From: Siphonodentalium dalli
Taxonomy: Eukaryota > Mollusca > Scaphopoda > Gadilida > Siphonodentaliidae
Reading direction: 5' to 3'
DNA: 64,000 nucleotides
Assembly (NCBI GenBank): GCA_032622095.1
Contig: CP136064.1
Coordinates: 130,621,605-130,685,604 of the forward strand
The notes under the pieces were generated by a model. That model worked only from the letters and a program-made list of their open reading frames with translations, ran no database searches and had not been told where the DNA came from. The position numbers and the translations under genes are program-made. Shown here piece by piece: positions 3,456 to 37,738 of the stretch (position 1 is the first letter of the stretch; every line of letters begins with the position of its first letter).

Positions 3456-4412
3456 TCGTATATAAAAACGAATGCGTATAGTATTCCGCTGCGCATGTGA
3501 TACATACTACTTGTTGTTTGCTAACGTATTCATCGAGAAATCTAAATTCTAGACATTGATGTCGAACGCAGTTTTCGATGGGCGAATAATGAAACTCCTG
3601 GTTTCAGGTAGTTACGGGGTTAATATATTTGGTTGGGGCGAATATCGGCCTTTCGTTAGGCACAAAAACGAGCCCTCTATGAGCTATAGTTCTCGGGATA
3701 TCGGCCGTCCAACGTAATTTCAAATTCTGTTCCGCAGATTGTCATTCTGTTCAGCATTCCATCCCATTCCGCAGAATGTCATGTACCGAATGATTTACAC
3801 ACACTATTGATACTCATCAGCCATTGTTCACACCTAAATATCGAAAGCAATTAACGTGTTCATAAAAGTTAGATACTGCAACAATGAGACATCTGCAAAG
3901 ATAGCTCCGCGCGCGAATACAAACATCCTGCAAAATGTCTATATATACGGTATGCATTTTGCGAGTATACGTCCCTTGTTATTAAAGTCATATAATAATA
4001 CCGATTTGTTTGGGGGTTGTATACCAAAGTACCATCATTACACTACATCATGATACTGAATAATGCCATGAGATAGCATGCAGAATAATAATCAGACCAC
4101 AATTATCGAACTTCGTTACATGGTTCGAGTACGACGATACCCAAATACATTTCTAGTCACATTTACCCATAGCTTCTATATGTCCTATGAAATAACACCT
4201 TCACGGAATACACCCAGAAATACTCAGTAGTTTTCTATAATAGTTTTACCAAAGTTGCCAGTCTATACATCTGACATGCATAATGCTTCGACTGACAACT
4301 TTGGTCAGAATGTTGGAGCAAACAACTACGAATTTGGACACAAATGAGGTATCAGCTTGTTTGAAAAAGAAAAAAAAAGAATAACACATGATCGTAGCCA
4401 AATATAATACTA
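3456..4412. other. Unassigned sequence left of the foldback element
   Basis: I recognise no gene. A short degenerate duplication (ttccgcagattgtcattctg and ttccgcagaatgtcatg) lies at about 3732-3785. The sequence is AT-rich with no open frame over 81 codons. It is the left host flank of the 18.6-kb element. Confidence 0.5.
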
Positions 4413-4420
4413 TGTAATAT
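4413..4420. repeat. 8-bp target site duplication, left copy (TGTAATAT)
   Basis: TGTAATAT directly precedes GGGTCC at 4421 and is repeated exactly at 23060-23067, directly after GGACCC. An exact 8-bp direct repeat outside a terminal inverted repeat is the footprint of a cut-and-paste-type insertion. Confidence 0.8.
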
Positions 4421-7400
4421 GGGTCCGCGAAGTTAGCACAACATTCAACATTCAACATTCGTTCAACATTCGCGTGAAGTTGGCACAACATTCAACATTC
4501 GTTCAACATTCGAATTTTCTTGTACATTTGTTTTTGAACGTGAATGGATTGAGTGGGTCGTATATATAACACCCCTATCAAAATTAGAGTATTCGATACT
4601 TCGATGGATTGAGTGGGTCGTATATATAGCACCCCTATCAAAATTAGAGTATTCGATACTTCGATGCTCATTTTTGAGCAATTTTAACATTCGATTTTTC
4701 TTGTACATAAATTGTTTTAATGTGAATGGATTTAGTGGGTCGTATACATAGCACTCTTATCAAAATGATTATTGGATACCTCCACGCTCATTTTTGAGCA
4801 ATTTCAAATCACGCTCATTTTTGAGCAATTTCAATTCCGGGGGAGAGAGGGGGCACATCATATACGCATGATCGGATCGGGCCCATATATGCAGGCATTA
4901 TACCCCGATGGTAATTCATTATCCATAGGGCCCACGCCTAGCATGTGTGGTTTTCGCTGGCGAATGTTAAACAGAAAGAACATGCAACATTCGTTCAACA
5001 TTCGCGTGAAGTTGGCACAACATTCAACATTCGTTCAACATTCGAATTTTCTTGTACATTTGTTTTTGAACGTGAATGGATTGAGTGGTACGTATATATA
5101 GAACCCCTATCAAAATTAGAGTATTCGATACTTCGATGCTCATTTTTGAGCAATTTTAACATTCGATTTTTCTTGTACATAAATTGTTTTAATGTGAATG
5201 GATTTAGTGGGTCGTATACATAGCACTCCTATCAAAATGAGTATTGGATACCTCGACGCTCATTTTTGAGCAATTTCAAATCACGCTCATTTTTGAGCAA
5301 TTTCAATTCCGGGGGAGAGAGGGAGCACATCATATACGCATGATCGGATCGGGCCCATATATGCAGGCATTATACCCTTATGGTACTTTAATTCTCCATA
5401 GGGCCCACGCCTGCATGTGTGGTTTTCGCTGGCGAATGTTGAACAGAAAGAACATGCAACATTCGTTCAACATTCGCGTGAAGTTGGCACAACATTCAAC
5501 ATTCAACATTCGTTCAACATTCGCGTGAAGTTGGCACAACATTCAACATTCGTTCAACATTCGAATTTTCTTGTACATTTGTTTTTGAACGTGAATGGAT
5601 TGAGTGGGTCGTATATATAACACCCCTATCAAAATTAGAGTATTCGATACTTCGATGGATTGAGTGGGTCGTATATATCACACCCCTATCAAAATTAGAG
5701 TATTCGATACTTCGATGCTCATTTTTGAGCAATTTTAACATTCGATTTTTCTTGTACATAAATTGTTTTAATGTGCATGGATTTAGTGGGTCGTATACAT
5801 AGCACTCTTATCAAAATGATTATTGGATACCTCGACGCTCATTTTTGAGCAATTTCAAATCACGCTCATTTTTGAGCAATTTCAATTCCGGGGGAGAGAG
5901 GGGGCACATCATATACGCATGATCGGATCGGGCCCATATATGCAGGCATTATACCCCGATGGTAATTAATTATCCATAGGGCCCACGCCTAGCATGTGTG
6001 GTTTTCGCTGGCGAATGTTAAACAGAAAGAACATGCAACATTCGTTCAACATTCGCGTGAAGTTGGCACAACATTCAACATTCGTTCAACATTCGAATTT
6101 TCTTGTACATTTGTTTTTGAACGTGAATGGATTGAGTGGGTCGTATATATAGAACCCCTATCAAAATTAGAGTATTCGATACTTCGATGCTCATTTTTGA
6201 GCAATTTTAACATTCGATTTTTCTTGTACATAAATTGTTTTAATGTCAATGGATTTAGTGGGTCGTATACATAGCACTCCTATCAAAATGAGTATTGGAT
6301 ACCTCGACGCTCATTTTTGAGCAATTTAAAATCACGCTCATTTTTGAGCAATTTCAATTCCGGGGGGAGAGAGGGGGCACATCATATACTCATGATCGGA
6401 TCGGGCCCATATATGCAGGCATTATACCCTGATGGTACTTTAATTATCCATAGGGCCCACGCCTAGCATGTGTGGTTTTCGCTGGCGAATGTTGAACAGA
6501 AAGAACATGCAACATTCGTTCAACATTCGCGTGAAGTTGGCACAACATTCAACATTCAACATTCGTTCAACATTCGAATTTTCTTGTACATTTGTTTTTG
6601 AACGTGAATGGATTGAGTGGGTCGTATATATAGCACCCCTATCAAAATTAGAGTATTCGATACTTCGATGCTCATTTTTGAGCAATTTTAACATTCGATT
6701 TTTCTTGTACATAAATTGTTTTAATGTGAATGGATTTAGTGGGTCGTATACATAGCACTCTTATCAAAATGAGTATTGGATACCTCGACGCTCATTTTTG
6801 AGCAATTTCAAATCACGCTCATTTTTGAGCAATTTCAATTCCGGGGGAGAGAGGGGGCACATCATATACGCATGATCGGATCGGGCCCATATATGCAGGC
6901 ATTATACCCTGATGGTACTTTAATTCTCCATAGGGCCCACGCCTAGCATGTGTGGTTTTCGCTGGCGAATGTTGAACAGAAAGAACATGCAACATTCGTT
7001 CAACATTCGCGTGAAGTTGGCACAACATTCAACATTCGTTCAACATTCGAATTTTCTTGTACATTTGTTTTTGAACGTGAATGGATTGAGTGGGTCGTAT
7101 ATATAGCACCCCTATCAAAATTAGAGTATTCGATACTTCGATGCTCATTTTTGAGCAATTTTAACATTCGATTTTTCTTGTACATAAATTGTTTTAATGT
7201 GAATGGATTTAGTGGGTCGTATACATAGCACTCCTATCAAAATGAGTATTGGATACCTCGACGCTCATTTTTGAGCAATTTCAAATCACGCTCATTTTTG
7301 AGCAATTTCAATTCCGGGGGAGAGAGGGGGCACATCATATACGCATGATCGGATCGGGCCCATATATGCAGGCATTATACCATGATGGTACTTTAATTCT

Positions 7401-7544
7401 CCATAGGGCCCACGCCTAGCATGTGTGGTTTTCGCTGGCGAATGTTGAACAGAAAGAACATGCAAAATTCGTTCAACATTCGCGTGAAATTGGCACAACA
7501 TTCAACATTCAACATTCGTTCAACATTCGAATTTTCTTGTACAG
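4421..7544 (+). repeat. Left arm: satellite array, about 473-bp unit
   Basis: Anchor gcatgtgtggttttcgctgg recurs at 4941, 5413, 5992, 6466, 6946 and 7419, giving periods of 472, 579, 474, 480 and 473 bp. The 579-bp unit has internal duplications (a repeated ggattgagtgggtcgtatat segment and a repeated ttcaacattcg block). Each unit contains copies of the hairpin GCTCATTTTTGAGC, a conserved segment gatcggatcgggcccatata, and a run of ttcaacattcg motifs. Reading frames across the units (for example the minus frame beginning MYKKNRMLKLL) are by-products of the repeat, being present, shifted or broken from unit to unit. Confidence 0.85.
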
Positions 7545-7846
7545 CTTGGTGGCTTCTTTCAACAATCTATTGTCAGTAATCCTCATTGACGAGTAGTCTA
7601 TCCACAAGAACATCAACTTCCCGGTCGTCTCCCTCGTTTTCATCTCCTATTTTCAACGCATCTTCCCCTCAGAAACCTGCTTCAGATCACCACCGGAATT
7701 ATAAATGAAATTACAAAATTGTCGATTTATAATCACATAGACATAATACTGGAACGTTCAGCCAATGACCTCCTGAAAATCCGACTGATATATCCACATG
7801 AAGTACAGTTAGACATTGTGGAAATAAAAATAAATTATGCCAGTCA
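7545..7846. other. Unassigned spacer at the inner edge of the left arm
   Basis: The satellite stops after ttttcttgtaca. The next 300 bp have no repeat or gene that I recognise. Confidence 0.4.
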
Positions 7847-8870
7847 TTATTATACGCCCGTTTGAAAAACGGCCGTATTATAGTATTGGTCTGTCCATCC
7901 GGGCGTCCGGGCGTCCGTTAACCTGGTTTCCGGATGATAACTTTAGTTAGAGTGAACCAAATTTAATAAAATTTGGAATGTGTGTTTATTAGCCGAAAAG
8001 TAAGTTGAAGTTCGAATTTGGGTTCCGCCCGCCAATTTTCACCGGAGTTATGCCCCTTATTTGACGTTTTTTGACTTAGAAAATCCTTGAAATTTGTGTC
8101 CGGATTATAACTTTAGTATAGTTTATCGGAATGAATCCAAATTTGGTATATTACTTTCTCCCACCAAAACACAGGTCAAGTTCGAACTTGGGTTCTGTCC
8201 GACCATTTTTGGCAGAGTTATGCCCCTTTTTCGACTCAGAAAATTCAGTTTTTCTTATGTTTTTTGGTTTCCGGATGATAACCTGATTTTGGAATGTTTA
8301 TACGCAAAACCCGTTTTTTTGTGGATTACATATATCGAAATACAGCTCAAGTCCGAATTTCGTTTTAATCCGATAATTTTTGCGAGAGTTATGGCCCCTT
8401 TTTTGACGTAATTTGACTTAGAAAATCCCTGAAATTTGTTGTCCGGATGATAACTTTAGTTAGAGTGAACCGATTTCAATCAAATTTGGTATGTGGGTGT
8501 ATTAGGCTAACAGACAGCTCAAGTTCGAAGTTTGGTTCCGTCCGCCAATTTTCACCGGAGTTATGCCCCTTATTTGATGTAATTTGACTTAGAAAATCCC
8601 TGAAATTTGTTGTCCGGATGATAACTTTACTAGAGCTTATCGGATTCAATGATAATTTGGTATATTACTTTCTCCCACCAAAACACAGGTCAAGTTCAAA
8701 TTTGAGTTCCGTCCACCAATTTTTACCAGAGTTATGCCCCTTTTTTTCCCAGAGAGGGCGTATTTTTCACGCCCAGCGTAGCTCGTGTTTATTGGGGGTT
8801 AGGCCGATACCATGCAGGGAGGATTTGGAAGGGGCGACACCCCTTCCGCCTACAACCCATTTGTGAAATT
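7847..8870 (+). repeat. Tandem repeat element, 5 units of about 171 bp
   Basis: It opens with an imperfect hairpin (tatacgcccgttt / aaaacggccgtatta). Five units follow, each beginning near tccggatgataactttag (about 7926, 8098, 8267, 8439, 8611) and each ending near gagttatgcccctt. The last unit runs into gagagggcgtatttttcacgccc, a partial inverse of the opening, so the array seems to be bounded by a short inverted motif. No credible protein: frames change between units. It is probably a non-autonomous element with tandem core units; superfamily unknown. Confidence 0.6.
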
Positions 8871-9032
8871 TTGAATGTGGTCATGCATGTTACAGTACAA
8901 GACACGATGAAAATGATGATGGATATGATCTAGACATTGATTATTTTTTCTCTCTCCGTCTGTCTGCGAGAAGTTCACGTTCTTGTTGTTCTCGTTGCTG
9001 TATAATACTTTTTGGAGCTCTGCACGTTCATC

Positions 9033-9520
9033 TTAAACGTACTCAATCCGAACAGAGGGTCCCCATCTCAACAGATTCCAACAACAACAATCCGATCAGA
9101 GGATCCTATATTACTATTTCTTTGGCTTTGGGGGTAAAAAATATTTGATTCGAGTCGAGGAACCCATCAAACAAAGCTCAGAGTTATTAGATATTGATTT
9201 TTGAAATTTGTTATGTTCTCGAGATGAGTAATAATAATTGCCGTCAATTTCGTATCCTGCTCGAGATGTGTACACCAAAACACCATTCAAACAGACAAGG
9301 ATGGATAACTCTAAAATCAAGTGGTAATAATAACGCAATTTTGACTGAGTTCTGGGCCAGAAAGTATTCCCGATAATGAAAAATAATAGATTTCGAAAAT
9401 CGATATCTAACAAATCTGAGCTTTGATGGGTGACTTCCTCGACTCGAATCAAATATTTTTGACCCCCGAAGCCATTGAAATAGTAATTGAGAGGAGTTTT
9501 ATCGGATTGAGTACCTTTAA
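9033..9520. mobile_element. TTAA-flanked MITE, copy 1 (piggyBac-like footprint)
   Basis: TTAA at 9033-9036 and 9517-9520 flank an element of 480 bp (9037-9516). The ends are ACGTACTCAATCCGA and the inverse of AGGTACTCAATCCGA. The subterminal arms (about 9110-9215 and 9385-9490) are inverted copies of each other, both holding the tatttga-ttcgagtcgagga segment. TTAA duplications are characteristic of piggyBac. No transposase, so non-autonomous. The same family recurs at 30904 and 56795. Confidence 0.7.
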
Positions 9521-9924
9521 TTGAAATGTATTTATTAACCCATTTCACCACTTATGCTGTGGTATTGCACTTCTGCTATCAGATTCTGACTGTTTCTTAT
9601 GAGCTCCGCAACAAATCAGTCAACAACAAATCAGTTGAATATTTACCAGTTGTATATTTACACAAACATGTTTTCACAACAACTCAAACTCAGTGGATTC
9701 ATGCTGATACCAATCACTGACCATTCATCACCGCGTGTCTGTTTATACAACGATATATATGAAGGGATCACACGCGCGTGCTTATACAAACATTTGATTA
9801 CCGATAAGGCATGCACACGATAACTGTCTTATAAAGCCAGAACATCACCGAAATGCTTAGAGTTATTACCTTGTGATAAGAAATCATAATTATATGTCCA
9901 ATTTGAAGTCATAAATATAATTTA
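9521..9924. other. Unassigned interval inside the foldback element
   Basis: About 400 bp without a recognisable gene. A small duplication caacaaatcagt occurs twice near 9610-9635. The interval ends at the first CTAG of the minus-strand Helitron array. Confidence 0.4.
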
Positions 9925-10724
9925 CTAGAAGGTGACCGACTTCGTCCGGGCTTTGACCTTGAATTGACCATTTTGAAGGTCAAGGTCAGGTGGGGTCAAA
10001 CACCAACACCCCAAAAATGGTGGAAATCGGCCCAGCGGATACCGGGAAATCGGCCCAGCGGATACCGAGATACCCATATGCATCAAATTTCGTCCGTAAA
10101 AATCCGCCAGTTTAACCCGATTTGATTTCCGCTCAAGTATATAAACGCGCCTCATATACACACGCTCATTTGGATCGAGTTTCAACGTAAAGATAAATTA
10201 CCATCGGTGTCCGAGATATCGCCAAGACGTCTGAAACAGTCAAATGCATCGGCCGGTTAAGCGTTAACGTGATTTAACGTTATGACCTCTAACGACGTCA
10301 TAGAAGTTACGCATTGTTTTTATCCTGATGGAAGATAGTACCACTTCTTCTTGATAATTGAGGCAGATAACTAAAACGGATACATACGCATTATATATCG
10401 TTGGAAAGAGGAAACACGAAAGATTCTCACAGTGTCATTATTATGACTGGCTTTTTGTTATTCGCGCTGTTTCGAATCGATTTGTAAGCACCGAACTCAA
10501 ATGAAAGTCCCGTAACACAGCGTAAAAACAGATTTGACCTCGGCACGTGAAAAGATGACATCGGATCTGAAAATTAATATGCCTATGCCACTTCCCGACC
10601 GATAGTATCCTCACATACGAAGTTTAATCGAAATCGGGTAGGCCGTTTTCGAGTTCATCGCGAACACACACACAGACAGACAACCACACACACACAGACA
10701 GATCTTCCAAAAATATATAATAGA
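9925..10724 (-). mobile_element. Non-autonomous Helitron Y1
   Basis: Read on the minus strand, the element starts TCTATTATATATTTTTGG with a (TG)n-rich tract (10666-10700). It ends with hairpin cccggacgaagtcgg, about 7 nt, and CTAG (plus 9925-9928); the next minus-strand base is T. The interior holds aaggtcaaggtca at 9976 and a long shared segment with Y3. No coding capacity. It is the 3'-most copy of the contiguous array 9925-16338. Confidence 0.6.
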
Positions 10725-11294
10725 CTAGAAGGTGACCCGACTTCGTCCGGGCTTTGACCTTGAATTGTCCATTTTGAAGGTCAAGGTCAAGTGGGGTAAC
10801 GATTTGACCAGTCCAAAACACTGCCCGGACAAAAGAACCCGACAAACGTGCCCGTCGAAATCCATCCGGTTTTACCCGATTTGACCTTGAATTGATCATT
10901 TTGAAGGTCAAGGTCTGGTCGGGGTCACGATTGGACCCGTCCAAAACAATCGGTGAACAAAAGTAACCCAACGTATCAAATTTCGTCGAAATCCCATCAA
11001 AATTGGCGATTTGACCTTGAAGTTACCCGATTTCAAGGTCAAGGTCACGTCGCACGGGCAAATGAATATGCTTATGAGACTCGCCATAAGAAAGTACCCC
11101 CACATACCAAGTTTCATCGAAATCCCGTGATATTCGGGCGTTTGACCTTGAAATGACCCGATTTCAAGGTCAAGGTGACGTCGCACGGACAAATTAATAT
11201 GCCTATGTTCGTCCCCGGCCGAAAATACCCCCACATACCAAGTTTCATCGAAATCGGTTGGGAAGTTTTCGAGTTCATCGCGAACACACACACA

Positions 11295-11328
<34 letters not shown>

Positions 11329-11349
11329 TCTTCCAAAATATATAATAGA
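10725..11349 (-). mobile_element. Non-autonomous Helitron Y2
   Basis: Same termini as Y1. The interior differs: four blocks of inverted tgacctt(g)/caaggtca motifs, including a perfect 13-bp stem at 11142-11154/11161-11173. A (CA)n tract lies at about 11285-11325 near the minus-strand 5' end. Over its length it is nearly identical to Y4 at 17249, implying recent amplification. Confidence 0.6.
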
Positions 11350-12274
11350 CTAGAAGGTGACCCGACTTCGTCCGGGCTTTGACCTTGAATTGTCTATTTT
11401 GAAGGCCAAGGTCAAGTGGGGTCACGATTTGACCCGTCCAAAACACTGCCCGAACAAAAGTACCCGACAAAAGTACCCGTCGAAATCCATCCGGTTTTAC
11501 CCGATTTGACCTTGAATTGACCATTTTGAAGGTCAAGTTCAGGTGGGGTCAAACACCAACACCCCAAAAATGGTGGAAATCGGCCCAGCGGATACCGGGA
11601 AATCGGCCCAGCGGATACCGAGATACCCTATGCATCAAATTTCGTCCGTAAAAATCCGCCAGTTTAACCCGATTTGATTTCCACTGAAGTATATAAACGC
11701 GCCTCATATACACACGCTCATTAATTATCAAGTTTCAACGTAAAGATAAATTACCATCGGTGCCCGAGATATCGCCAAGACGTCTGAAACAGTCAAATGC
11801 ATCGGCCTGTTAAGAGTTAACGTGATCTAACTTTATGACCTCTAACGACGTCATAGAAGTTACGCATTGTTTTTACCCTGATAGAAGATCGTACCACTTC
11901 TTCTTAATAATTGAGGCAGATAACTAAAACGGATACATACATATTATATATCGTTGGAAAGAGGAAACACGAAAGATTCTCATAGTGTCATTATTATGAC
12001 TGGCATGTTATTATTCGCGCTGTTTCGAATCGATTTGTAAGCACCGAACTCAAATGAAAGTCCCGTAACACAGCGTAAAAACAGATTTGACCTCGGCACG
12101 TGAAAAGTTGACCTCGGATCTGAAAATCAATAGGCCTATGTTCGTCCCCGGCCGAAAATACACCCACATACCAAGATTCATCGAAATCGGTTGGGACGTT
12201 TTCGAGTTCATCGCGAACACACAGACACACACACACACAGACAGACACACAGATCTTCCAAAATATATAATAGA
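11350..12274 (-). mobile_element. Non-autonomous Helitron Y3
   Basis: Same termini. The interior combines the start of Y2 with most of Y1: the segment accaacaccccaaaaatggt and everything after it match Y1 closely. It therefore looks like a recombinant or common-ancestor form. A CA/CAGA tract lies at about 12220-12252. It directly abuts the first Z element, sharing the CTAG/TC junction. Confidence 0.6.
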
Positions 12275-12780
12275 CTAGCCGATGAGCCCGACGTTGTCCG
12301 GGCTATTCAAAAACCAAATTTCAAGTCGATAGCTCTACCCGTTTCCGAGATCTGGTCTGCGCATGCGCGAAGCTGGCGTCGCATGGGCTCGGCGACCCGA
12401 TAAAATTCGTATCCGGGGCAAGATACATTCACATACCAAATTTCAAGTCGATAGCTCCACCCGTTTCCGAGATCTCGTCTGCGCATGCGCGAAGCTGGCG
12501 TCGCACGGGCTCGGCGACCCGATAAAATTCGTATCCGGGGCAAGATACATTCACATACCAAATTTCAAGTCGATAGCTCCACCCGTTTCCGAGATCTCGT
12601 CTGCGCATGCGCGAAGCGGGCGCCGCACGGGCTCGCTAATACGACAACGTTCACCGCCTGGTAAAACTACTCACACGTACCAAGTTTCGTCCCGATCGGT
12701 CGAGAATCGTAGATTTGTATAAATGACAGACAGACAGACAAACAAACAAACAAACAGAGGTCTTCAAAATATATATGAGA
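12275..12780 (-). mobile_element. Non-autonomous Helitron Z1
   Basis: The plus strand begins ctagccgatgagcccgacgt and ends ttcaaaatatatatgaga. On the minus strand this reads TCTCATATATATTTTGAAG at the 5' end, and a gcccg/cgggc hairpin plus 7 nt plus CTAG at the 3' end. The core has three tandem 122-bp units (anchor tgcgcatgcgcg at about 12357, 12479, 12601) and a CAGA/CAAA microsatellite at 12724-12757. Confidence 0.65.
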
Positions 12781-13368
12781 CTAGCCGATGAGCCCGACGT
12801 TGTGCGGGCTATTCAAAAACAAAATTTCAAGTAGCTCCGACGTTGTCCAGGCTATTCAAAAACCGACGAAATTTGTATCCGGGGCAAGATACATTCACAT
12901 AGCAAATTTCAAGTCGATAGCTCCACCCGTTTCCGAGATCAGGTCTGCGCATGCGCGAAGCTGGCGTCGCACGGGCTCGGCGACCCGATAAAATTCTTAT
13001 CCGGGGCAAGATACATTCACATACCAAATTTCAAGTCGATAGCTCCACCCGTTTCCGAGATCTCGTCTGCGCATGCGCGAAGCTGACGTCGCACGGGCTC
13101 GGTGACCCGATAAAATTCGTATCCGGGGCAAGATACATTCACATACCAAATTTCAAGTCGATAGCTCCACCCGTTTCCGAGATCTCGTCTGCGCATGCGC
13201 GAAGCGGGCGCCGCACGGGCTCGCCAATCCGACAACGTTCACCGCTTGGTCAAACTACACTCACGTACCAAGTTTCGTCCCGATCGGTCGAGAATCGTAG
13301 ATTTGTATTAATGACAGACAGACAGACAGACAGACAAACAAACAGAGGTCTTCAAAATATATATTAGA
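12781..13368 (-). mobile_element. Non-autonomous Helitron Z2
   Basis: Same termini as Z1, three 122-bp units (12945-13200), and a CAGA microsatellite at 13314-13345. The start carries a small internal duplication of the gacgttgtcc-ggctattcaaaa segment. Confidence 0.65.
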
Positions 13369-14034
13369 CTAGCCGATGAGCCCGACGTTGTCCGGGCGAC
13401 GTTGTCCGGGCTATTCAAAAATCAAATTTCAAGTCGATAGCTCTACCCGTTTCCGAGATCTGGTCTGCGATGAGCCCGACGTTGTCCGGGCTATTCAAAA
13501 ACCAAATTTCAAGTCGATAGCTCCACCCGTGTCCGAGATATGGTCTGCGCATGCGCGAAGCTGACGTCGCACGGGCTCGGCGACCCGATAAAATTCGTAT
13601 CTGGGGCAAGATACATTCACATACCAAATTACAAGTCGATAGCTCCACCCGTTTCAAAGATCTCGTCTGCGCATGCGCAAAGCTGGCGTCGCATGGGCTC
13701 GGCGACCCGATAAAATTCGTATCCGGGGCAAGATATATTCACATAGCAAATTTCAAGTCGATAGCTCCACCTGTTTCCGAGATCTCGTCTGCGCATGCGC
13801 GAAGCTGGCGTCGCACGGACTCGGCGACCCGATAAAATTAGTACTCGGGGTAAGATACATTCACATACCAAATTTCAAGTCGATAGCTCCACCCGTTTCC
13901 GAGATCTCGTCTGCGCATGCGCTGCACGGGCGTCGCGCGGGCTCGCCAATACGACAACGACCACCGCCTGGTCAAACTACACACACGTACCAAGTTTCGT
14001 CCCGATTGGTCGAGAATCGTAGATTTGTATTAAG

Positions 14035-14068
<34 letters not shown>

Positions 14069-14090
14069 GGTCTTCAAAATATATATGAGA
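13369..14090 (-). mobile_element. Non-autonomous Helitron Z3
   Basis: Same termini and four 122-bp units. The first about 110 bp contain a repeated gagcccgacgttgtccgggc head segment (13378-13400 and 13471-13493), suggesting slippage or recombination between element ends. CAGA microsatellite at 14036-14068. Confidence 0.6.
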
Positions 14091-15032
14091 CTAGCCGATG
14101 AGCCCGACGTTGTCCGGGCTATTCACAAAATCAAATTTCAAGTCGATAGCTATTCAAAAACCAAATTTGAAGTCGATAGCTACACCCGTTTCCGAGATCT
14201 GGTCTGCGCATGCGCGAAGCTGGCGTCGCACGGGCTCGCCGACCCGATAAAATTCGTATCCGGGGCATGATACATTCACATAGCAAATTTCAAGTCGATA
14301 GCTCCACCCGTTTCCGAGATCTCGTCTGCGCATGCGCGAAGCGGGCGCCGCACGGGCTCGGCGACCCGATAAAATTCGCATCCGGGGCAAGATACATTCA
14401 CATAGCAAATTTCAAGTCGATAGCGCCACCCGTTTCCGAGATCTCGTCTGCGCATGCGCGAAGCGGGCGCCGCACGGGCTCGCCAATACGACAACGACGA
14501 CCGCCTGGCCAAACTACACTCACGTACCAAGTTTCGTCCCGATCGGTCGAGAATCGTAGATTTGTATCAATGTCAGACAAACATACAGACAGACAGACAA
14601 ACAAACAGACAGAGGTCTTAGCTGGCGTCGCACGGACTCGGCGCCCGATAAAATTCGTATCCGGGGCAAGATACATTCACATAGCAAATTTCAAGTCGAT
14701 AGCTCCACCCGTTTCCGAGATCTCGTCTGCGCATGCGCGAAGCTGGTATCGCACGGGCTCGGCGACCCGATACAATTCGTATCCGGGGCAAGATACATTC
14801 ACATAGCAAATTTCAAGTCGATAGCTCCACCCGTTTCCGAGATCTCGTCTGCGCATGCGCGAAGCGGGCGCCGCACGGGCTCGCCAATACGACAACGTTC
14901 ACCGCCTGGTCAAACTACACACACGTACCAAGTTTCGTCCCGATCGGTCGAGAATCGTAGATTTGTATTAATGACAGACAGACAGACAGACAAACAAACA
15001 TACAGACAGAGGTCTTCAAAATATATATGAGA
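14091..15032 (-). mobile_element. Non-autonomous Helitron Z4, fused from two copies
   Basis: The CTAG head is at 14091 and the tail at 15032. In the middle, at about 14615-14622, the sequence passes from the microsatellite and gaggtctt straight into the inside of a 122-bp unit (agctggcgtcgc), without the usual AT-rich tail or CTAG head. This is a deletion or unequal-exchange junction between two neighbouring elements. Confidence 0.6.
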
Positions 15033-15604
15033 CTAGCCGATGAGCCCGACGTTGTCCGGGTTATTCAAAAACCAAATTTCAAGTCGATAGCTACACCCGT
15101 TTCCGAGATCTGGTCTGCGCATGCGCGAAGCTGGCGTCGCACGCGCTCGGCGACCAGATAAAATTCGTACCCGGGGCAAGATACATTCACATACCAAATT
15201 TCAAGTCGATAGCTCAACCCGTTTCCGAGATCTCGTCTGCGCATGCGCGAAGCTGGCGTCGCACGGGCTCGGCGACCCGATAAAATTCGTATCCGGGGCA
15301 AGGTACATTCACATAGCAAATTTAAAGTCGATAGCTCCACCCGTTTCCGAGATCTGGTCTGCGCATGCGCGAAGCTGGTGTCGCACGGGCTCGGCGACCC
15401 GATACAATTCGTATCCGGGGCAAGGTACATTCACATACCAAATTTCAAGTCGATAGCTCCACCCGTTTCCGAGATCTCGTCTGCGCATGCGCGAAGCGGG
15501 CGCCGCACGGGCTCGCCAATACGACAACGTTCACCGCCTGGTCAAACTACACTCACGTACCAAGTTTCGTCCCGATCGGTCGAGAATCGTAGATTTGTAT
15601 TAAT

Positions 15605-15636
<32 letters not shown>

Positions 15637-15664
15637 AACAGAGGTCTTCAAAATATATATGAGA
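15033..15664 (-). mobile_element. Non-autonomous Helitron Z5
   Basis: Complete copy with four 122-bp units and a CAGA microsatellite at 15606-15640, bounded by CTAG at 15033 and the next CTAG at 15665. Confidence 0.65.
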
Positions 15665-16270
15665 CTAGCCGATGAGCCCGACGTTGTCCAGGCTATTCAA
15701 AAACCGACGAAATTCGTATCCGGGGCAAGATACATTCACATAGCAAATTTCAAGTCGATAGCTCCACCCGTTTCCGAGATCTGGTCTGCGCATGCGCGAA
15801 GCTGGCGTCGCACGGGCTCGGCGACCCGATAAAATTCTTATCCGGGGCAAGATACATTCACAAATTTCAAGTCGATAGCTCCACCCGTTTCCGAGATCTC
15901 GTCTGCGCATGCGCGCAGCTGACGTCGCACGGGCTCGGTGACCCGATAAAATTCTTGTCCGGGACAAGATACATTCACATACCAAATTTCAAGTCGATAG
16001 CTCCACCCGTTTCCGAGATCTCGTCTGCGCATGCACGAAGCTGACGTCGCACGGGCTCGGTGACCCGATAAAATTCGTATCCGGGGCAAGATACATTCAC
16101 ATACCAAATTTCAAGTAGATAGCTCCACCCGTTTCCGAGATCTCGTCTGCGCATGCGCGAAGCGGGCGCCGCACGGGCTCGCCAATACGACAACGTTCAC
16201 CGCCTGGTCAAACTACACTCACGTACCAAGTTTCGTCCCGATCGGTCGAGAATCGTAGATTTGTATTAAT

Positions 16271-16302
<32 letters not shown>

Positions 16303-16338
16303 AACAAACAAACAGAGGTCTTCAAAATATATATGAGA
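15665..16338 (-). mobile_element. Non-autonomous Helitron Z6, outer end of the array
   Basis: Four 122-bp units. One (about 16027) has a damaged anchor (gcgcatgcacg), and one lacks cataccaa near 15860. The outer end reads, on the minus strand, ...ccagttA then TCTCATATATATTTTG, so the array is preceded by A here and followed by T at 9924. This is the A|T insertion pattern of Helitrons without duplication. Confidence 0.65.
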
Positions 16339-16780
16339 TAACTGGAAAGTAAAAATTCAAGCATGATTTTACGGGGTCCGTTAGGCCCGTTCCAAACGAC
16401 GGATTTTTGTCGACTCGAATATAATTGTATTAAATCCGTCGGTGATGCGACTGCGGTCAATTTTGTTTCAGACGGACGCATCTTCATCGCGTCGAATCTA
16501 ATGCATCGGTCGATTTATTTAAAGGTGCACCACCGGTTACCGTCACAAAATGGTCATCCGTAGATATGGAGGCCTATATATACCGGTATATTATACATAT
16601 ATACCAATATACAGTACAAATTATGTATATGCGCGATGGTAGCGCGAATATATGTACACGTGTATATATATAGTACATATATAGTTATATAATATACTAT
16701 ATAATAGGCGCTACAAATAAATGTTATATCGTGCAACCAATTGCCATATATGTGAATACCATGCATGTAAATACAGGTAT
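16339..16780. other. Unassigned interval with TA-rich tract
   Basis: 16339-16560 is unique-looking, with a pair of ggatttt/aaatccg inverted bits around 16400-16440. 16560-16780 is rich in tatata and taccggtata palindromic motifs. No gene recognised. Confidence 0.4.
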
Positions 16781-17248
16781 ACAGAAGTTATTATAAATCA
16801 GAGACTACTACCCCTACCCCTTATAATAAGGAATACCGGAATATATTAATTATTATAAATCATAGGCTATACCACCTATATCCTTTATAATATGGAGTGC
16901 GGTATCTTTGAATTAATATCATAGGTTACCATCCCTATACCCCCCATAATAAGTAATACAGGTTTATATGAATTATTATAAATCTGAGCCTATATACCAC
17001 CTCTATACCCCTTATAATATGGAATACCGGTATATATAAATTATTATAAATCATAGGCTACCACGGTAGAGTGCATTCTGCATGTTCCTTATAATAAGTA
17101 ATACCGGAATATATGAATTATTATAAATAAGAGGTTACCACCCCTATACCCCTCATAATAAGTAATGCCGGTTTAAATAAATTATTATAACTCAGTGGTA
17201 CCACCACTACCCCTAGCTTATAATAAGTAATACCGGTATATATATTAA
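16781..17248 (+). repeat. Minisatellite, about 76-bp unit (first part)
   Basis: Six to seven degenerate units of the type aattattataaatcatagg + ctaccacccctataccc + cttataataagtaataccgg. The array stops at the Helitron boundary at 17249 and resumes after the Helitron pair at 19013. Confidence 0.7.
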
Positions 17249-17865
17249 CTAGAAGGTGACCCGACTTCGTCCGGGCTTTGACCTTGAATTGTCCATTTTG
17301 AAGGTCAAGGTCAAGTGGGGTAACGATTTGACCAGTCCAAAACACTGCCCGGACAAAAGTACCCGACAAACGTGCCCGTCGAAATCCATCCGGTTTTACC
17401 CGATTTGACCTTGAATTGATCATTTTGAAGGTCAAGGTCTGGTCGGGGTCACGATTGGACCCGTCCAAAACAATCGGTGAACAAAAGTAACCCAACGTAT
17501 CAAATTTCGTCGAAATCCCATCAAAATTGGCGATTTGACCTTGAAGTTACCCGATTTCAAGGTCAAGGTCACGTCGCACGGGCAAATGAATATGCTTATG
17601 AGACTCGCCATAAGAAAGTACCCCCACATACCAAGTTTCATCGAAATCCCGTGATATTCGGGCGTTTGACCTTGAAATGACCCGATTTCAAGGTCAAGGT
17701 GACGTCGCACGGACAAATTAATATGCCTATGTTCGTCCCCGGCCGAAAATACCCCCACATACCAAGTTTCATCGAAATCGGTTGGGACGTTTTCGAGTTC
17801 ATCGCGAACACACAGACACACACACACACAGACAGACACACAGATCTTCCAAAATATATAATAGA
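17249..17865 (-). mobile_element. Non-autonomous Helitron Y4
   Basis: Near-identical to Y2 (10725-11349), differing mainly in microsatellite length. Hairpin plus CTAG at 17249-17252 (minus 3' end), with a minus 5' end TCTATTATATATTTTGG at 17865. It contains the same inverted tgaccttga/tcaaggtca motifs. Confidence 0.65.
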
Positions 17866-19012
17866 CTAGCAGGTTAGCCCGCCACCGGCGGCTTGTCCGT
17901 AACATGACATTTATATATATATATTTTAAATTTTTAGCTCCACGCGTTTCAATAAGAAAAAATTGTACCCGGTAGCTCCACCAGTTTCCGAGATCTGGTC
18001 TGCGCATGAAAATTTGTAGCCGACGCAAGATACATTCACATGCCAAATTTCAAGTCGATAGCTCCACCCGTTTCCGAGATCTCGTCTGCGCATGCGCTGC
18101 ACGGGCGTCGCACGGGCTCGGCGACCCGATAAAATTTGTACCCGGCGCAAGATACATTCACATAGCAAATTTCAAGTCGATAGCTCCACCCGTTTCCGAT
18201 ATCTCGTCTGCGCATGCGCTGCACGGGCGTCGCACGGGCTCCTCATCGTCGCAAAGAGCGGACAGTCAATTAACCCCGTTGTGAACCTCAATCACCAACG
18301 CGACGTAAACATGTGTTGCGTTCTAAAAATAGGAAAGCACTTTCTCTCTGCATAATTCTGCAGATGCTAATAACGTTGCTCCCCGTAGGTAGCAATATCG
18401 TTGTTGTTGATATTTACGGCTTGGGGGCTATTTTCTTATTTAGCAAGTTTGAGCTCAATCGGTTAGAGTCTATAAAGGACACACTCATATATATGACACT
18501 TCCCGTAGGTAGCAAGTTTGAGCTCAATCGGCATTCCCTGGAATTTCCCGTAGATTGTCAGATTCAAGTAGCTTTATAACGGTATATCTGGGGAGAAATC
18601 TGATGCTATATTCGTGATTATCTGGGATGATTTCGGTATATACCAAAGGTATATACTGTAAAATCAAAGCGGGCCATCCGTGCTCGCAGGGAATAAATTT
18701 CGAGCGATAACGTTTGCGTTCCCGTATAACTCTGCAGATGCGAATAACGTTGAATGTGAAACAGACGCTCTTTATAGAGATGCGTCAAAAACAAACGCTC
18801 ATTAAATAATCACTTGATTAACCCCCGCCGTGCCTTTGCGGTGATTTGAGATTGGAGAACGGGTGCTCTGAGCTTCTCTAAACCGCTACCACGGTCGTGT
18901 CGGTGGGATTTGACACTTACATAGGACGTTTGAGCTCAATCAGTACACGCGTTTTGGATTCTATGAAGTACACACACACATATATACGAAGTCTCAAAAT
19001 ATATAGTATAGA
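17866..19012 (-). mobile_element. Non-autonomous Helitron X5, mosaic with a Z-type core
   Basis: Plus-strand ctagcaggttagcccgccac is the inverse of the X 3' end. The minus 5' end is TCTATACTATATATTTTGAG at 19012, identical to X2. The first 400 bp hold two 122-bp Z-type units (anchors at about 18087 and 18209) and a fragment. The rest (about 18300-19000) is inverted family X sequence (gagctcaatcgg, tatataccaaaggtatatac). This copy therefore joins Z core units and X flanks inside X termini. Confidence 0.6.
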
Positions 19013-19185
19013 TAGATTAAAGATTAATTATAGATTATTATACACCAGAGACTACCACCCCTATCCCTTACAATAAGGAATATCGGTCAATATGACTTAT
19101 TATAAATCAGTTTCTACAACCCCTACCCCTTATACCGGTATATATGAATTATTATAAATCATTGATACTATATCCATTATAAGAT
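19013..19185 (+). repeat. Minisatellite, about 76-bp unit (second part)
   Basis: It continues the unit interrupted at 17248 (gagactaccacccctatccc, ttataaatcagt, taccggtatatatgaattat). Together with the first part it brackets the Y4-X5 insertion. Confidence 0.65.
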
Positions 19186-19744
19186 GTGAGTCAGTGACAT
19201 GCCATGTTCATTGAGAAATCAAACTACCAAAATAATTAACTGCATGGTCCGTATCAGACAGGGTCCGTAAGAGCCAGGGTCCGCGTATCAGCCGCATACC
19301 ATTCAAACTTCCTGCTGAATTGAGGGTAAAAACATATATATCCAGGGGTCCTATATATACCTCAATGAAAGTGATCTAGTCTATATAGGCAATTATGGAC
19401 ATATATATAGGTATTGCATCGAGAGGAAAATTATAAGACCTATATACATTGTTCGTTAACATAAACACTTGACTTTCGGGATCCGTATTGGGCCTATTGG
19501 CCTATGTTGGATTTGTGAGATAGGTGGACTTTTTTTTATCACCACTTGGTTTGATTGAGGTATCTGATGATAAAATCGGTCATTTTTGCAATAAAGGTGA
19601 CATATTTGACAGAGATATTTCACACGTTTCGAGAAGAGATGTCAGAGATATTCGTTCAATTTCGATACTTGAGAATGGGGCGATACCAGAGTAAAATGTA
19701 ATACATGTAACCATTGAATCTCGGAATGGCAGTCATGACGTCAT
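19186..19744. other. Unassigned interval before the right arm
   Basis: No gene or recognised repeat, apart from short repeats of the cagggtccg type near 19258-19285. It ends where gggcccgatcctatcatgcg marks the start of the right satellite arm. Confidence 0.4.
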
Positions 19745-22700
19745 GTATATGGGCCCGATCCTATCATGCGTATATATGTGATACCCCCCCCCCCCCCCCC
19801 GGAATTAAAATTCCTCAAAAATGAGCATCGAAGTATATATCGAATACTATACTTTTCATACTATAGGAGTGCTATATATACGACCCACTAAATCCATTCA
19901 CGTTAAAACAATTTATGTACAAAAAAAATCGAATGTTAAAATTGCTCAAAAATGAGCATCGAAGTATCCAATACTCATTTTGCTATATATACGACCCACT
20001 AAATCCATTCACTTGAAAAATGAGCATCGAAGTATCGAATACTCTAATTTTGATAGGGGTGCTATATATACGACACACTTAATCCATTCACGTTGAAAAA
20101 ACTTATGTACAATACAAGAAATGTTGAACGAATGTTGAATGTTGAATGTTGTGCCAACTTCACACGAATGTTGAACGAATGTTGAATGTTCTTTCTGTTC
20201 AACATTCGCCAGCGAAAACCACACATGCTAGGCGTGGGCCCTATGGAGAATTAAAGTACCATCAGGGTAAATCCCTGCATATATGGGCCCGATCCGATCA
20301 TGCGTATATGATGTGCCCACTCTCTCCCCCGGAATTGAAATTGCTCAAAAATGAGCGTCGAAGTATCCAATACTCATTTTGATAGGAGTGCTATATATAC
20401 GACCCACTCAATCGATTCACGTTAAAAAACAAATGTACAAGAAAATTCGAATGTTGAACGAATGTTGAATGTTGAATGTTGTGCCAACTTCACGCGAATG
20501 TTGAACGAATGTTGCATGTTCTTTCTGTTCAACATTCGCCAGCGAAAACCACACATGCTATGCGTTGGCCCTATGGAGAATTAAAGTACAATCGGGGTAT
20601 AATGCCTGCATATATGGGCCCGATCCGATCATGCGTATATGATGTGCCCCCTCTCTCCCCCGGAATTGAAATTGCTCAAAAATGAGCGTGATTTGAAATT
20701 GCTCAAAAATGAGCGTCGAGGTATCCAATAATCATTTTTATAAGAGTGCTATGTATACGACCCACTAAATCCATTCACATTAAAACAATTTATGTACAAG
20801 AAAAATCGAATGTTAAAATTGCTCAAAAATGAGCATCGAATACTCTAATTTTGATAGGGGTGCTATATATACCACCCACTAAATCCATTCACGTTCAAAA
20901 ACAAATGTACAAGATAATTTGAATGTTGAACGAATGTTGAATGTTGAATGTTGTGCCAACTTCACGCGAATGTTGAACGAATGTTGCATGTTCTTTCTGT
21001 TCAACATTCGCCAGCGAAAACCACACATGCTAGGCGTGGGCCCTATGGAGAATTAAAGTACCATCAGGGTATAATACCTGCATATATGGGCCCGATCAGA
21101 TCATGCGTATATGATGTGCCCCCTCTCTCTCCCGGAATTGAAATTGCTCAAAAATGAGGGTGATTTGAAATTGCTCAAAAATGAGCGTCGAGGTATCCAA
21201 TAATCATTTTGATAAGAGTGCTATGTATACGACCCACTAAATCCATTGACATTAAAACAATTTATGTACAAGAAAAATCGAATGTTAAAATTGCTCAAAA
21301 AGGAGGATCGAAGTATCGAATACTCTAATTTTGATAGGGGTTCTATATATACGACCCACTCAATCCATTCACGTTCAAAAACAAATGTACAAGAAAATTC
21401 GAATGTTGAACGAATGTTGAATGTTGAATGTTGTGCCAACTTCACGCGAATGTTGAACGAATGTTGCATGTTCTTTCTGTTCAACATTCGCCAGCGAAAA
21501 CCACACATGCTAGGCGTGGGCCCTATGGAGAATTAAAGTACCATCGGGGTATAATGCCTGCATATATGGGCCCGATCCGATCATGCGTATATGATGTGCC
21601 CCCTCTCTCCCCCGGAATTGAAATTGCTCAAAAATGAGCGTGATTTGAAATTGCTCAAAAATGAGCGTCGAGGTATCCATGCAATAATCATTTTGATAAG
21701 AGTGCTATGTATACGACCCACTAAATCCATTCACATTAAAACAATTTATGTACAAGAAAAATCTAATGTTAAAATTGCTCAAAAATGAGCATCGAAGTAT
21801 CGAATACTCTAATTTTGATAGGGGTGCTATATATACGACCCACTCAATCCATTCACGTTCAAAAACAAATGTACAAGAAAATTCGAATGTTGAACGAATG
21901 TCGAATGTTGAATGTTGTGCCAACTTCACGCGAATGTTGAACGAATGTTGCTTGTTCTTTCTGTTCAACATTCGCCAGCGAAAACCACACATGCTAGGCG
22001 TGGGCCCTATGGAGAATTAAAGTACCATCAGGGTATAATACCTGCATATATTGGCCCGATCCGATCATGCGTATATGGTGTGCCCCCTCTCTCCCCCCGG
22101 AATTGAAATTGCTCAAAAATGAGCGTGATTTGAAATTGCTCAAAAATGAGCGTCGAGGTATCCAATACTCATTTTGATCGGAGTGCTATGTATACGACCC
22201 ACTAAATCCATTGACATTAAAACAATTTATGTACAAGAAAAATCGAATGTTAAAATTGCTCAAAAATGAGCATCGAAGTATCGAATGCTCTAATTTTGAT
22301 AGGGGTTCTATATGTACGACCCACTCAATCCATTCACGTTCAAAAACAAATGTACAAGAAAATTCGAATGTTGAACGAATGTTGAATGTTGAATGTTGTG
22401 CCAACTTCACGCGAATGTTGAACCAATTGTTGCATGTTCTTTCTGTTCAACATTCGCCAGCGAAAACCACACATGCTAGGCGTGGGCCCTATGGAGAATT
22501 AAAGTACAATCGGGGTATAATGCCTGCATATATGGGCCCGATCCGATCATGCGTATATGATGTGCCCCCTCTCTCCCCAGGAATTGAAATTGCTCAAAAA
22601 TGAGCGTGATTTGAAATTGCTCAAAAATGAGCGTCGATGTATCCAATAATCATTTTGATAAGAGTGCTATGTATACGACCCACTAAATCCATTCACATTA

Positions 22701-23059
22701 AAACAATTTATGTACAAGAAAAATCGAATGTTAAAATTGCTCAAAAATGAGCATCGAAGTATCGAATACTCTAATTTTGATAGGGGTTCTATATATACGA
22801 CCCACTCAATCCATTCACGTTCAAAAACAAATGTACAAGACAATTCGAATGTTGAACGAATGTTGAATGTTGAATGTTGTGCCAACTTCACGCGAATGTT
22901 GAACGAATGTTGCATGTTCTTTCGGTTCAACATTCGCCAGCGAAAACCACACATGCTAGGCGTGGGCCCTATGGAGAATTAAAGTACCATCAGGGTATAA
23001 TGCCACGCGAATGTTGAACGAATGTTGAATATTGAATGTTGTGCTAACTTCACGGACCC
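19745..23059 (-). repeat. Right arm: satellite array, inverted relative to the left arm
   Basis: Anchor ccacacatgctaggcgtgg (inverse of the left-arm anchor) recurs at 20219, 20549, 21021, 21501, 21985, 22467 and 22947: periods 330 (a short unit), 472, 480, 484, 482 and 480. The innermost unit is the most diverged and carries a long C-run at 19785-19800. The outermost unit is cut: after ggtataatgcc at 23003 it jumps to the terminal cacgcgaatgttg block. Confidence 0.85.
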
Positions 23060-23067
23060 TGTAATAT
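23060..23067. repeat. 8-bp target site duplication, right copy (TGTAATAT)
   Basis: Exact copy of 4413-4420, directly after GGACCC at 23054-23059. Confidence 0.8.
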
Positions 23068-24547
23068 GTCGTATCCTAGTTTATTACCTTTTCCTCGTTT
23101 CTGGTTGCGTTTGCGATTGCCTTGCCCATTTTGAATGCGTGATACTCATCAACCCGAAACAATGTGATTCCCCACCTTGTTTGAGATACGGAGGTAATAG
23201 CGAAGATTGTTTATTTTAAATTCGATGAATCGTAAATAAATCGTTCAGTTACTATCGCATTTCGCTGGCACGGTGATGTCATAAACCTAACGACCTAAAC
23301 ATTTTCACTTCATTAGCGAATTTACGATTCGTACAATGAGGAGAAAGCCCGTACAACTGACGCAAATTGTGGCGAGCACATGTCTCACTGGGGTGTACCC
23401 GTGGGACATATATAAGGAGCGTGATTGTTTTCGCCAGGTTCAGAAACCAAAGCGAAATACTTACAAATTGTGTGAGTATCACTTAAAATCGTTTGATACG
23501 CCCTTCGTGAAGTGTTTATACGTATACTTTGTTATAACTTCTTCGCGCTGTGCATTTAGTCATACTTACCAAGAGTGCCGTGTGAAGTGAATACGGAACC
23601 ATATTGTGGGAATATGTGGTCATCTATTTGTTTCATGGATATTTTATTCGTAATGATGTTTCACGGGCTTTTTGAAACAGGTATGCGTATACTTTATAAT
23701 TATATAATTGAATAACCAATACTCACCGTCGATTGACTCACTATAATGAGTTTCCGAATTAACGTTCAATTTAAAGTGGACACTGCTGAGCCAGTATTAT
23801 GGAAACCCTTCCCGTCTGCGGAACTTTGAAGACCCGATTTTTATGATAGAGCATAACATTCCGCATATTTTGAAGCTTATTTGCGACATGAGAAGTGTCG
23901 CATTCGAATTTTATGGCACTTTTTACGTTTTTGGCCTATGTAGGTGTCTAAATTGTACATTTTAGTTGGGTAGGGGTAAGTAATTCTCCTAATACTGGGC
24001 ACAATTTGACATATACTGAGCTGAAGTTGGTTTCAACTTGAAAGGGTGTTATCATATACTAGCAATATACATGGTTACATTATTGCATTTTTCACGAATT
24101 TAAATTTAAATTCTTCACGCTCCTTTTTCTGACACATCAGACAGGTATATATACAACAATGATGCATATATGCATTATATAGAGTCATTGAAATAAAATA
24201 GCATTCAGACAAATGTATTCGTATTATACAATCAATGTCATGTTAAGTTTCTTGGCTGTTGTTCTTTATAACTTATCGCCAGCATTATTGATTAGACTTG
24301 TTGGGATTGTGTGGTAAGCATGCTACAGGATTATGAACTATGATGTCAGTGAACGAGTTCGCGTCACAAGCGATATCAAATAATTCTCTGGGACATGCCG
24401 TGAGGAAAACATTTAATTTGATATCTGGACTGACGCTATCCGGTTTTATCGAATTTATTCATTAGTTCATACCATTAATTATATCGTTGTAATGTAGTAT
24501 TCCGCAATCCCTGGGTAGTTCATAATAACATGTAAAGGGAGATACTC
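23068..24547. other. Unassigned sequence between the foldback and TTAA elements
   Basis: The longest open frame is 84 codons (23336-23590, +) and has no recognisable domain. The sequence looks single-copy within the window. No RNA gene seen. Confidence 0.4.
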
Positions 24548-32262: not shown

Positions 32263-32601
32263 ATGTTACAGAACATCACAGTTCAACTCAGTTCGATTGA
32301 TGAACTCAAGAGCGAAATGGCCACTATGAATAGGACACTTTCTGACATACAGTAGTCTGTTATGAATCTAAAAGGCAGGGTGACCAACTTGGAAATAAAG
32401 GACCAGTGCAAATCCAGTGATATCATCAACCTTCAAATATTCCAGGAAAGCAGCAAAATGCAGATGGTCGAACTTTTACAAAGGTCCGCTAGATTAGACC
32501 TCATTGATGAACGATCTAAATTTGTGCTAGAAAAGGTCACAGACGTGGAATCGAGGTTCATGAGAAATGAACTTATATTCACAGGTATATGCGAGGCCTA
32601 A
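32263..32601 (+). pseudogene. LINE B ORF1, N-terminal part (coiled coil)
   Basis: A start codon at 32263 opens a helical, heptad-like segment (LSSIDELKSEMATMN...LSDI). An in-frame TAG near 32353 breaks it; the frame continues (NLKGRVTNLEIKDQ...) to a TAA at 32599-32601 after GICEA. Its role would be RNA binding and multimerisation of the retrotransposon particle. The TAA is also present in the second copy at about 39170, so the element was already mutated when the segment was duplicated. Confidence 0.55.
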
Positions 32602-37701: not shown

Positions 37702-37738
37702 CAGAGAAGAACTATTGTTCTGATCTCAATGATGCAGT

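What the first reader, a model, noticed from the sequence alone, without database searches (positions are those of the whole stretch)
4413..23067. 18.6-kb foldback transposon built from inverted satellite arms, with exact 8-bp target duplication
Seen: the terminal 56 bp at 4421 and 23059 are inverted copies with 2 mismatches; TGTAATAT sits directly outside both ends; both arms are arrays of the same 473-484 bp unit in opposite orientation. Known: foldback elements (FB, TU, Galileo) have tandem-repeat-built inverted arms. Inferred: the whole 18.6 kb, Helitron array included, behaves or behaved as one transposon, which would be unusually large. I recognise no named family for it.
Basis: partly seen in the sequence, partly recalled or inferred. 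Interest (0 to 1): 0.85.

Follow-up and report, generated by a model that had tools for sequence, protein, structure and literature searches.

The report
Large foldback transposon with satellite arms
The 18.6-kb stretch is one copy of a genome-wide family of foldback DNA transposons whose inverted arms are built of repeated satellite units, and sister copies of 15-26 kb show that very large elements of this kind, with no transposase gene found in them, have moved as whole units.

Summary
In detail: 56-bp inverted ends with 2 mismatches, TGTAATAT outside both, arms that are opposed arrays of one 472-484 bp unit. The host genome (unnamed, 2.23 Gb) holds 204 exact 26-bp termini; the reversed control has none. 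Among 187 placed termini, neighbours within 30 kb give 50 inward pairs, 0 outward, 7 same-facing; 33 pairs are 0.3-9 kb and 17 are 15.6-25.6 kb. Of 34 pairs whose flanks I read, 26 have an exact, different 9-bp duplication; the 17 long ones all have a recognisable one. Twelve places share a 1-kb centre at 97-100%, eleven between inward termini. The window copy sits in a dispersed repeat; eight fetched copies of it are uninterrupted with a single TGTAATAT(G/A)-like site. So: a real foldback family, probably moved in trans by a Mutator-like transposase (inferred from 9 bp; 150 scored MULE domains all lie 51 kb or more from placed termini). Corrections: the family duplication is 9 bp; the Helitron-like array here is nested cargo absent at that point from four sister copies, so this exact 18.6-kb form is not shown to have moved whole. 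Known kind; size and arms are unusual.

The parts
4413..4421 (.). left target-site duplication TGTAATAT(G)
   Evidence: single in 8 related uninterrupted sites
4421..4476 (+). left terminus, 56-bp inverted repeat, GGGTCCGCGAAGTTAGCACAACATTC...
4421..7543 (+). left arm: array of mostly 472-484 bp satellite units with terminus-like modules that lack GGGTCC
7544..8838 (.). stretch between arm and shared centre, not present at this point in sister copy C4:76.8; holds an approximately 171-bp tandem array at 7929-8746
8839..9036 (+). shared centre, piece 1 (97% to four long sister copies)
9037..9563 (.). stretch absent from sister copies at this point (insert here or loss there)
9564..9924 (+). shared centre, piece 2 (94%)
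9925..16339 (.). nested Helitron-like tandem array (approximately 122-bp core repeats, GACA microsatellites; start motif CTAGAAGGTGAC at 9925, 10725, 11350)
   Evidence: uninterrupted at this point in sister copies
16340..16696 (+). shared centre, piece 3 (87-88%; BLAST places its start at 16321)
17249..18241 (.). second Helitron-like copy (start motif at 17249)
18260..19013 (.). young dispersed repeat (3919 candidate places; the 39 other scored places at 97-99%), nested
19746..23059 (-). right arm: same satellite unit inverted, inner part degenerate
23004..23059 (-). right terminus, 56-bp inverted repeat
23060..23068 (.). right target-site duplication TGTAATAT(G)

Best explanation
The stretch is a copy of a foldback DNA transposon family in which no copy examined encodes a transposase. 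SHOWN: the ends are a conserved 26-bp terminus (GGGTCCGNGAAGTTNGCACAACATTC); copies lie at many sites with their own 9-bp duplications; short copies are largely the two arms; the four long copies read end to end have arms of about 3-7 kb around a centre of about 10 kb shared at 95% or more; the target of the window copy is a dispersed repeat whose other copies are uninterrupted. INFERRED: a transposase made elsewhere, most likely of the Mutator (MULE, perhaps Phantom) superfamily, cuts at GGGTCC and inserts with a 9-bp stagger. The terminus-like modules in the arm units are probably extra binding sites, not cut sites; unequal exchange, slippage or gene conversion between units lengthens and shortens the arms. 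Other mobile elements insert into the centre and are carried along. This copy is a more diverged sister of the long class that has gained nested repeats.
For:: 104+100 exact termini, control 0+0; 187 placed termini, neighbours within 30 kb: 50 inward, 0 outward, 5 and 2 same-facing; 34 pairs read, 26 exact 9-bp duplications, all different; 552 + 90 cross-pairings of flanks of different copies never fell below 3 mismatches. Of the 17 pairs over 15 kb: 14 exact, 1 with one mismatch, 1 with two, plus the window copy; shared centres, two multi-copy long classes; 44 terminal modules read GTTAGC in 43, GTTGGC in 1; 147 internal ones 5 and 142; uninterrupted target repeats; no credible domain in 15 of the 23 centre frames of 80 aa or more of C4:76.8. 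MULE genes exist in this genome.
Against: No autonomous copy found: the 150 scored MULE domains (of 813 candidates) lie at least 51 kb from placed termini. The Mutator link rests on the 9-bp duplication and on published foldback families. Two of 34 pairs (858 and 306 bp) have no duplication, and 46 of the first 100 listed termini have no exact partner within 30 kb. When the nested inserts entered the window copy relative to its own insertion is unknown, and it shares no stretch of 300 bp at 95% with the centre of the long class. Module binding and arm growth are inference.
Confidence: 0.88

Rival explanations
1. Foldback family mobilised by another transposase with 8-9 bp duplications, such as Merlin (IS1595-like), with the same anatomy.
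For: Merlin duplications are 8-9 bp (recalled); PF12762 domains exist in this genome: 62 matches, all 77 candidates scored.
Against: The nearest lies 94 kb from the 158 terminus places compared. Tm1, a foldback family with 9-bp duplications and a known transposase, is Mutator/Phantom (PMC3169594, passages read).
Confidence: 0.12
2. A satellite array inverted by chromosomal rearrangement or mis-assembly that only looks like a transposon.
For: The arms are arrays of one satellite unit, and inverted repeats are prone to assembly faults; raw reads could not be seen.
Against: 50 inward and no outward neighbouring pairs, 26 different exact 9-bp duplications, uninterrupted target repeats, near-identical centres at a dozen places.
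Confidence: 0.01
3. The long forms are short foldback copies that each grew after insertion by nested insertions and array expansion, so nothing over about 10 kb has moved.
For: The window copy has several nested inserts; C2:221.2 holds a Ty3-type and C4:102.7 a LINE-type reverse transcriptase.
Against: The 10.7-kb centre of C4:76.8 is covered at 95% or more over 10435, 9810 and 10749 bases by three copies at other sites, 12 places share a 1-kb piece at 97-100%, and in a second class one copy shares 2.7 kb with one sister and 1.7 kb with another at 99%; the long pairs read have their own duplications.
Confidence: 0.06

Closest known systems
Tm1 (root-knot nematodes), Mutator/Foldback family, PMC3169594 (passages read)
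   Same: Composite inverted repeats with varying numbers of an internal motif, 9-bp target duplications, MITE-like and other transposase-less forms.
   Different: Tm1 elements in the passages are about 1-2.3 kb with an approximately 14-bp motif, and one class encodes a Phantom-like transposase; here arm units are 472-484 bp, pairs reach 25 kb and no transposase copy was found.
Tetris (Drosophila virilis), PMC4079207 (passages read)
   Same: Foldback, apparently non-autonomous, 8-10 bp duplications, assigned to Mutator on that ground, arm repeats that became satellite DNA.
   Different: Three structurally complete copies reported there; here a large family with two multi-copy classes of 15-26 kb.
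Galileo (Drosophila), PMC3573991 (passages read)
   Same: Long internally repetitive inverted arms, arm growth by tandem expansion, two-arm non-autonomous copies.
   Different: P superfamily, flanked by 7-bp sequences, arms at most about 1.26 kb.
FB/NOF of Drosophila, TU of sea urchin, FARE of Arabidopsis (recalled, and some named in the papers read)
   Same: Inverted arms made of tandem repeats around variable centres.
   Different: Sequence relation and size not compared here.

Membership tests
Foldback transposons (structural class) | Inverted arms built of tandem repeats | tested here: met
Foldback transposons (structural class) | Dispersed copies with target-site duplications and variable centres | tested here: met
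Foldback transposons (structural class) | Uninterrupted target site elsewhere | tested here: met
   (dispersed repeat copies, not alleles; one element only)
Mutator (MULE) superfamily | 9-bp target-site duplication | tested here: met
   26 of 34 exact at 9; none longer among the 24 scanned for length
Mutator (MULE) superfamily | MULE transposase in an element with these termini | tested here: inconclusive
   150 of 813 candidates scored, nearest 51 kb from a placed terminus; 187 of at least 204 termini placed
Phantom subclass | FLYWCH plus MULE protein | not tested
   FLYWCH not searched in the genome
P superfamily / Galileo | 7-8 bp duplication | tested here: not met
   9 bp in 26 of 34; 8 bp only as one reading of the window copy
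hAT superfamily | 8-bp duplication (recalled) | tested here: not met
Merlin | IS1595-type transposase in an element with these termini | tested here: inconclusive
   62 matches, nearest 94 kb from 158 terminus places
Polinton/Maverick or other large coding transposons | Coding capacity (polymerase, integrase, capsid) | tested here: not met
   in C4:76.8, longest centre frame 163 aa, no credible domain in 15 of 23 frames; their duplication is 5-6 bp (recalled)
Helitron/Helentron (nested array 9925-16339 only) | Insertion without target duplication, core repeats and microsatellite | tested here: inconclusive

The most novel reading that the evidence does not exclude
A cut-and-paste DNA transposon without a gene of its own, whose full form is 20-25 kb, has multiplied to a dozen or more near-identical copies, far above the size at which DNA transposition is said to fade. 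The arrays of terminus-like modules in its arms may be what lets a transposase pair such distant ends, and the element would then be a vehicle that sows ready-made satellite arrays and nested Helitron-like cargo across the genome.
Probability: 0.4. Interest if true: 0.68.

Novelty: new variant of a known kind. Interest (0 to 1): 0.52.

Why it matters
[quoted passage not shown] it also names exceptions, such as 16-20 kb coding CACTA elements, composite units between foldback elements in Drosophila, and 100-200 kb cargoes that were mobilised. A family with 17 terminus pairs 15.6-25.6 kb apart, each with a recognisable duplication, tests that limit in nature and ties the spread of satellite DNA to a defined mobile element, as Tetris did. 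Short and long copies in one genome make arm growth and cargo capture measurable.

Tried and rejected
Rejected: mis-assembly (many independent copies with duplications; reads not seen). Rejected: 8-bp superfamilies (P, hAT), since 26 of 34 duplications are exactly 9. Rejected as the family's own gene: frames of 371 and 189 aa in the centre of the 19.9-kb copy C1:161.9 (L040). No Pfam match up to E 10 and no credible solved relative (one match at E 0.48). The 371-aa frame has 115 matches genome-wide, many near-identical; the nearest of the 19 best others lies 15 kb from a terminus, so it is taken as another nested element; the 189-aa frame was not searched in the genome. Rejected as own genes: a Ty3-type reverse transcriptase/integrase frame and a reverse transcriptase frame judged LINE-type in two copies. 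Led nowhere: the terminus in viral contigs (0); Rfam at gathering cut-offs on the window and on four stretches of two long copies (0); the species (not given, not pursued). Not done: FLYWCH search; flanks of the unread pairs; centres of most long copies. One search holds a faulty motif count (regex error); one search replaces it.

Full report
OBSERVATION. Both arms are arrays of the same unit, mostly spaced 472-484 bp, in opposite directions. The arms repeat a 20-bp terminus-like module (GYGAAGTTRGCACAACATTC) that lacks the GGGTCC start.

COPIES. The window lies in an unnamed 2.23-Gb genome of 9 contigs. The exact 26-bp terminus pattern occurs 104 + 100 times, the reversed control never (100 places listed). 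Two plain 35-base extensions gave 96 and 66 places, all listed. Merged, 187 distinct places. Neighbours within 30 kb: 50 inward-facing, 0 outward-facing, 7 same-facing. The 50 lengths fall in two groups: 33 from 286 to 9016 bp and 17 from 15.6 to 25.6 kb.

TARGET DUPLICATIONS. I read the flanks of 34 pairs: the 17 long ones and 17 shorter ones for which DNA was held. Exact 9-bp duplications: 26 of 34, all different, 73% A+T. In the 24 scanned for length, 17 are exactly 9, one (the window) is 8, none is longer. The other 8 of the 34: two copies of one duplicated locus with an exact 9-bp repeat after one extra base; two with one mismatch; one (C1:161.9, 19.9 kb) with two; the window copy; and two (858 and 306 bp) with none. 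Pairing flanks of different copies (552 + 90) never gave fewer than 3 mismatches. In the window copy, 8 bp with a full end and 9 bp with one G lost are the same letters.

EMPTY SITES. The window's two flanks joined with a single target copy match a dispersed repeat across the joint in all 40 scored places (of 2969 candidates; 82-85%). Eight were fetched and aligned: all are continuous, with TGTAATATG in one, TGTAATATA in four, and variants with one or two changes in three. These are related repeat copies, not alleles.

SHORT AND LONG FORMS. Of 14 copies examined (306 to 4360 bp), most consist largely of inverted arm matches. Four long copies (C2:71.6, C2:168.7, C4:41.3, C4:76.8; C4:41.3 reversed) share their centre: of the 10749 bases of C4:76.8's centre, 10435, 9810 and 10749 are covered by matches of at least 300 bp at 95% or more. 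A 1001-bp piece of it occurs full-length at 97-100% in 12 places: 11 between inward-facing termini (one pair 40.8 kb apart, one with a further terminus inside) and one about 4 kb from a single terminus; two split or partial copies also lie in long pairs. The other listed matches of 100 bp or more are at most 96% and elsewhere or in side repeats, two of 62 bp are 97-98%, so part of the centre is related to another dispersed repeat (40 of 809 candidates scored, list cut). In a second class C4:197.2 shares 2732 bp with C8:104.6 and 1707 bp with C6:49.2 at 99% (only 5 kb from the middle of each was read). Thus elements of roughly 20-25 kb have moved whole. Helitron-like repeats lie between the same left and right flanks in C4:76.8, C4:41.3 and C2:71.6 (C4:41.3 and C2:168.7 carry an 0.84-kb piece of that region twice), so cargo is carried along.

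THE WINDOW COPY. Three pieces (8839-9036, 9564-9924, 16340-16696) match the left centre of the four long copies in order at 97, 94 and 87-88%. Between pieces 2 and 3 the sisters are continuous, so the 6.4-kb Helitron-like array was added here. 18260-19013 is a very young high-copy repeat. No part of the window element matches the centre of C4:76.8 at 95% over 300 bp. The copy is a diverged member enlarged by nested insertions; how long it was when it moved is unknown.

CODING AND TRANSPOSASE. No credible domain in 15 of 23 frames of 80 aa or more from the centre of C4:76.8, nor in 5 of the 11 frames of 120 aa or more in the window element (all weak Pfam matches are far below cut-offs). MULE domains are common in the genome (813 candidates, 150 scored), none inside a pair, the nearest 51 kb from a placed terminus. 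IS1595/Merlin domains: 62, nearest 94 kb. The Mutator assignment is an inference from the 9-bp duplication, as the authors did for Tetris (PMC4079207, passages read), and is supported for Tm1 by a Phantom-like protein (PMC3169594, passages read).

MECHANISM. Shown: movement of arm-bounded units with 9-bp duplications. Inferred: trans-mobilisation by a MULE transposase. The A/G difference between terminal (43 A: 1 G) and internal (5 A: 142 G) modules in 31 sequences (both copies of one duplicated locus included) shows that ends and arm modules are kept distinct, which fits cut sites versus extra binding sites; binding itself is untested.

NOVELTY. Foldback elements with satellite-forming arms are known. 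In the listings of five searches of the open-licence library and the passages read I saw no foldback class of 15-26 kb without a gene and with this many copies; sizes of FARE, TU and FB/NOF elements were not checked. I rate it a new variant of a known kind.

Noticed in passing
window 4293-4412 and 23069-23188: The element sits inside a very high-copy dispersed repeat (2969 candidate places).
   Followed up: yes
window 32438-33785 and 39008-40390: 1.38-kb direct repeats, 96.7% identical, flank minus-strand frames of 203, 667, 305 and 405 aa (34245-38956) that look by eye like a non-LTR reverse transcriptase with endonuclease; the long direct repeats around it are odd.
   Followed up: no
window 47313-47762: 149-aa frame with a zinc-protease-like HEMAH motif (by eye); only a weak SprT-like match (E 0.083).
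   Followed up: no
L040:2891-4756: Two frames (189 and 371 aa) without known domain; the 371-aa one has many near-identical dispersed copies: an unidentified young mobile element nested in a 19.9-kb foldback copy.
   Followed up: partly
L057, L058 (C1:57.09 and C1:56.52): The same foldback insertion in two places with the same flanks, each with an additional terminus inside.
   Followed up: partly
G000:C4:191010005-191010159, C2:146271410-146271652, C8:104614215 and 104617765: Same-facing termini close together, perhaps nested or tandem foldback copies.
   Followed up: no
L053:4796-5600 and 7089-7608: A second tandem array (about 173 bp) in opposite directions in the right part of the centre, shared by both long classes.
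   Followed up: no
window 1106-1375 and 18437-18690: Inverted copies at 86%, the second within the young nested repeat.
   Followed up: no
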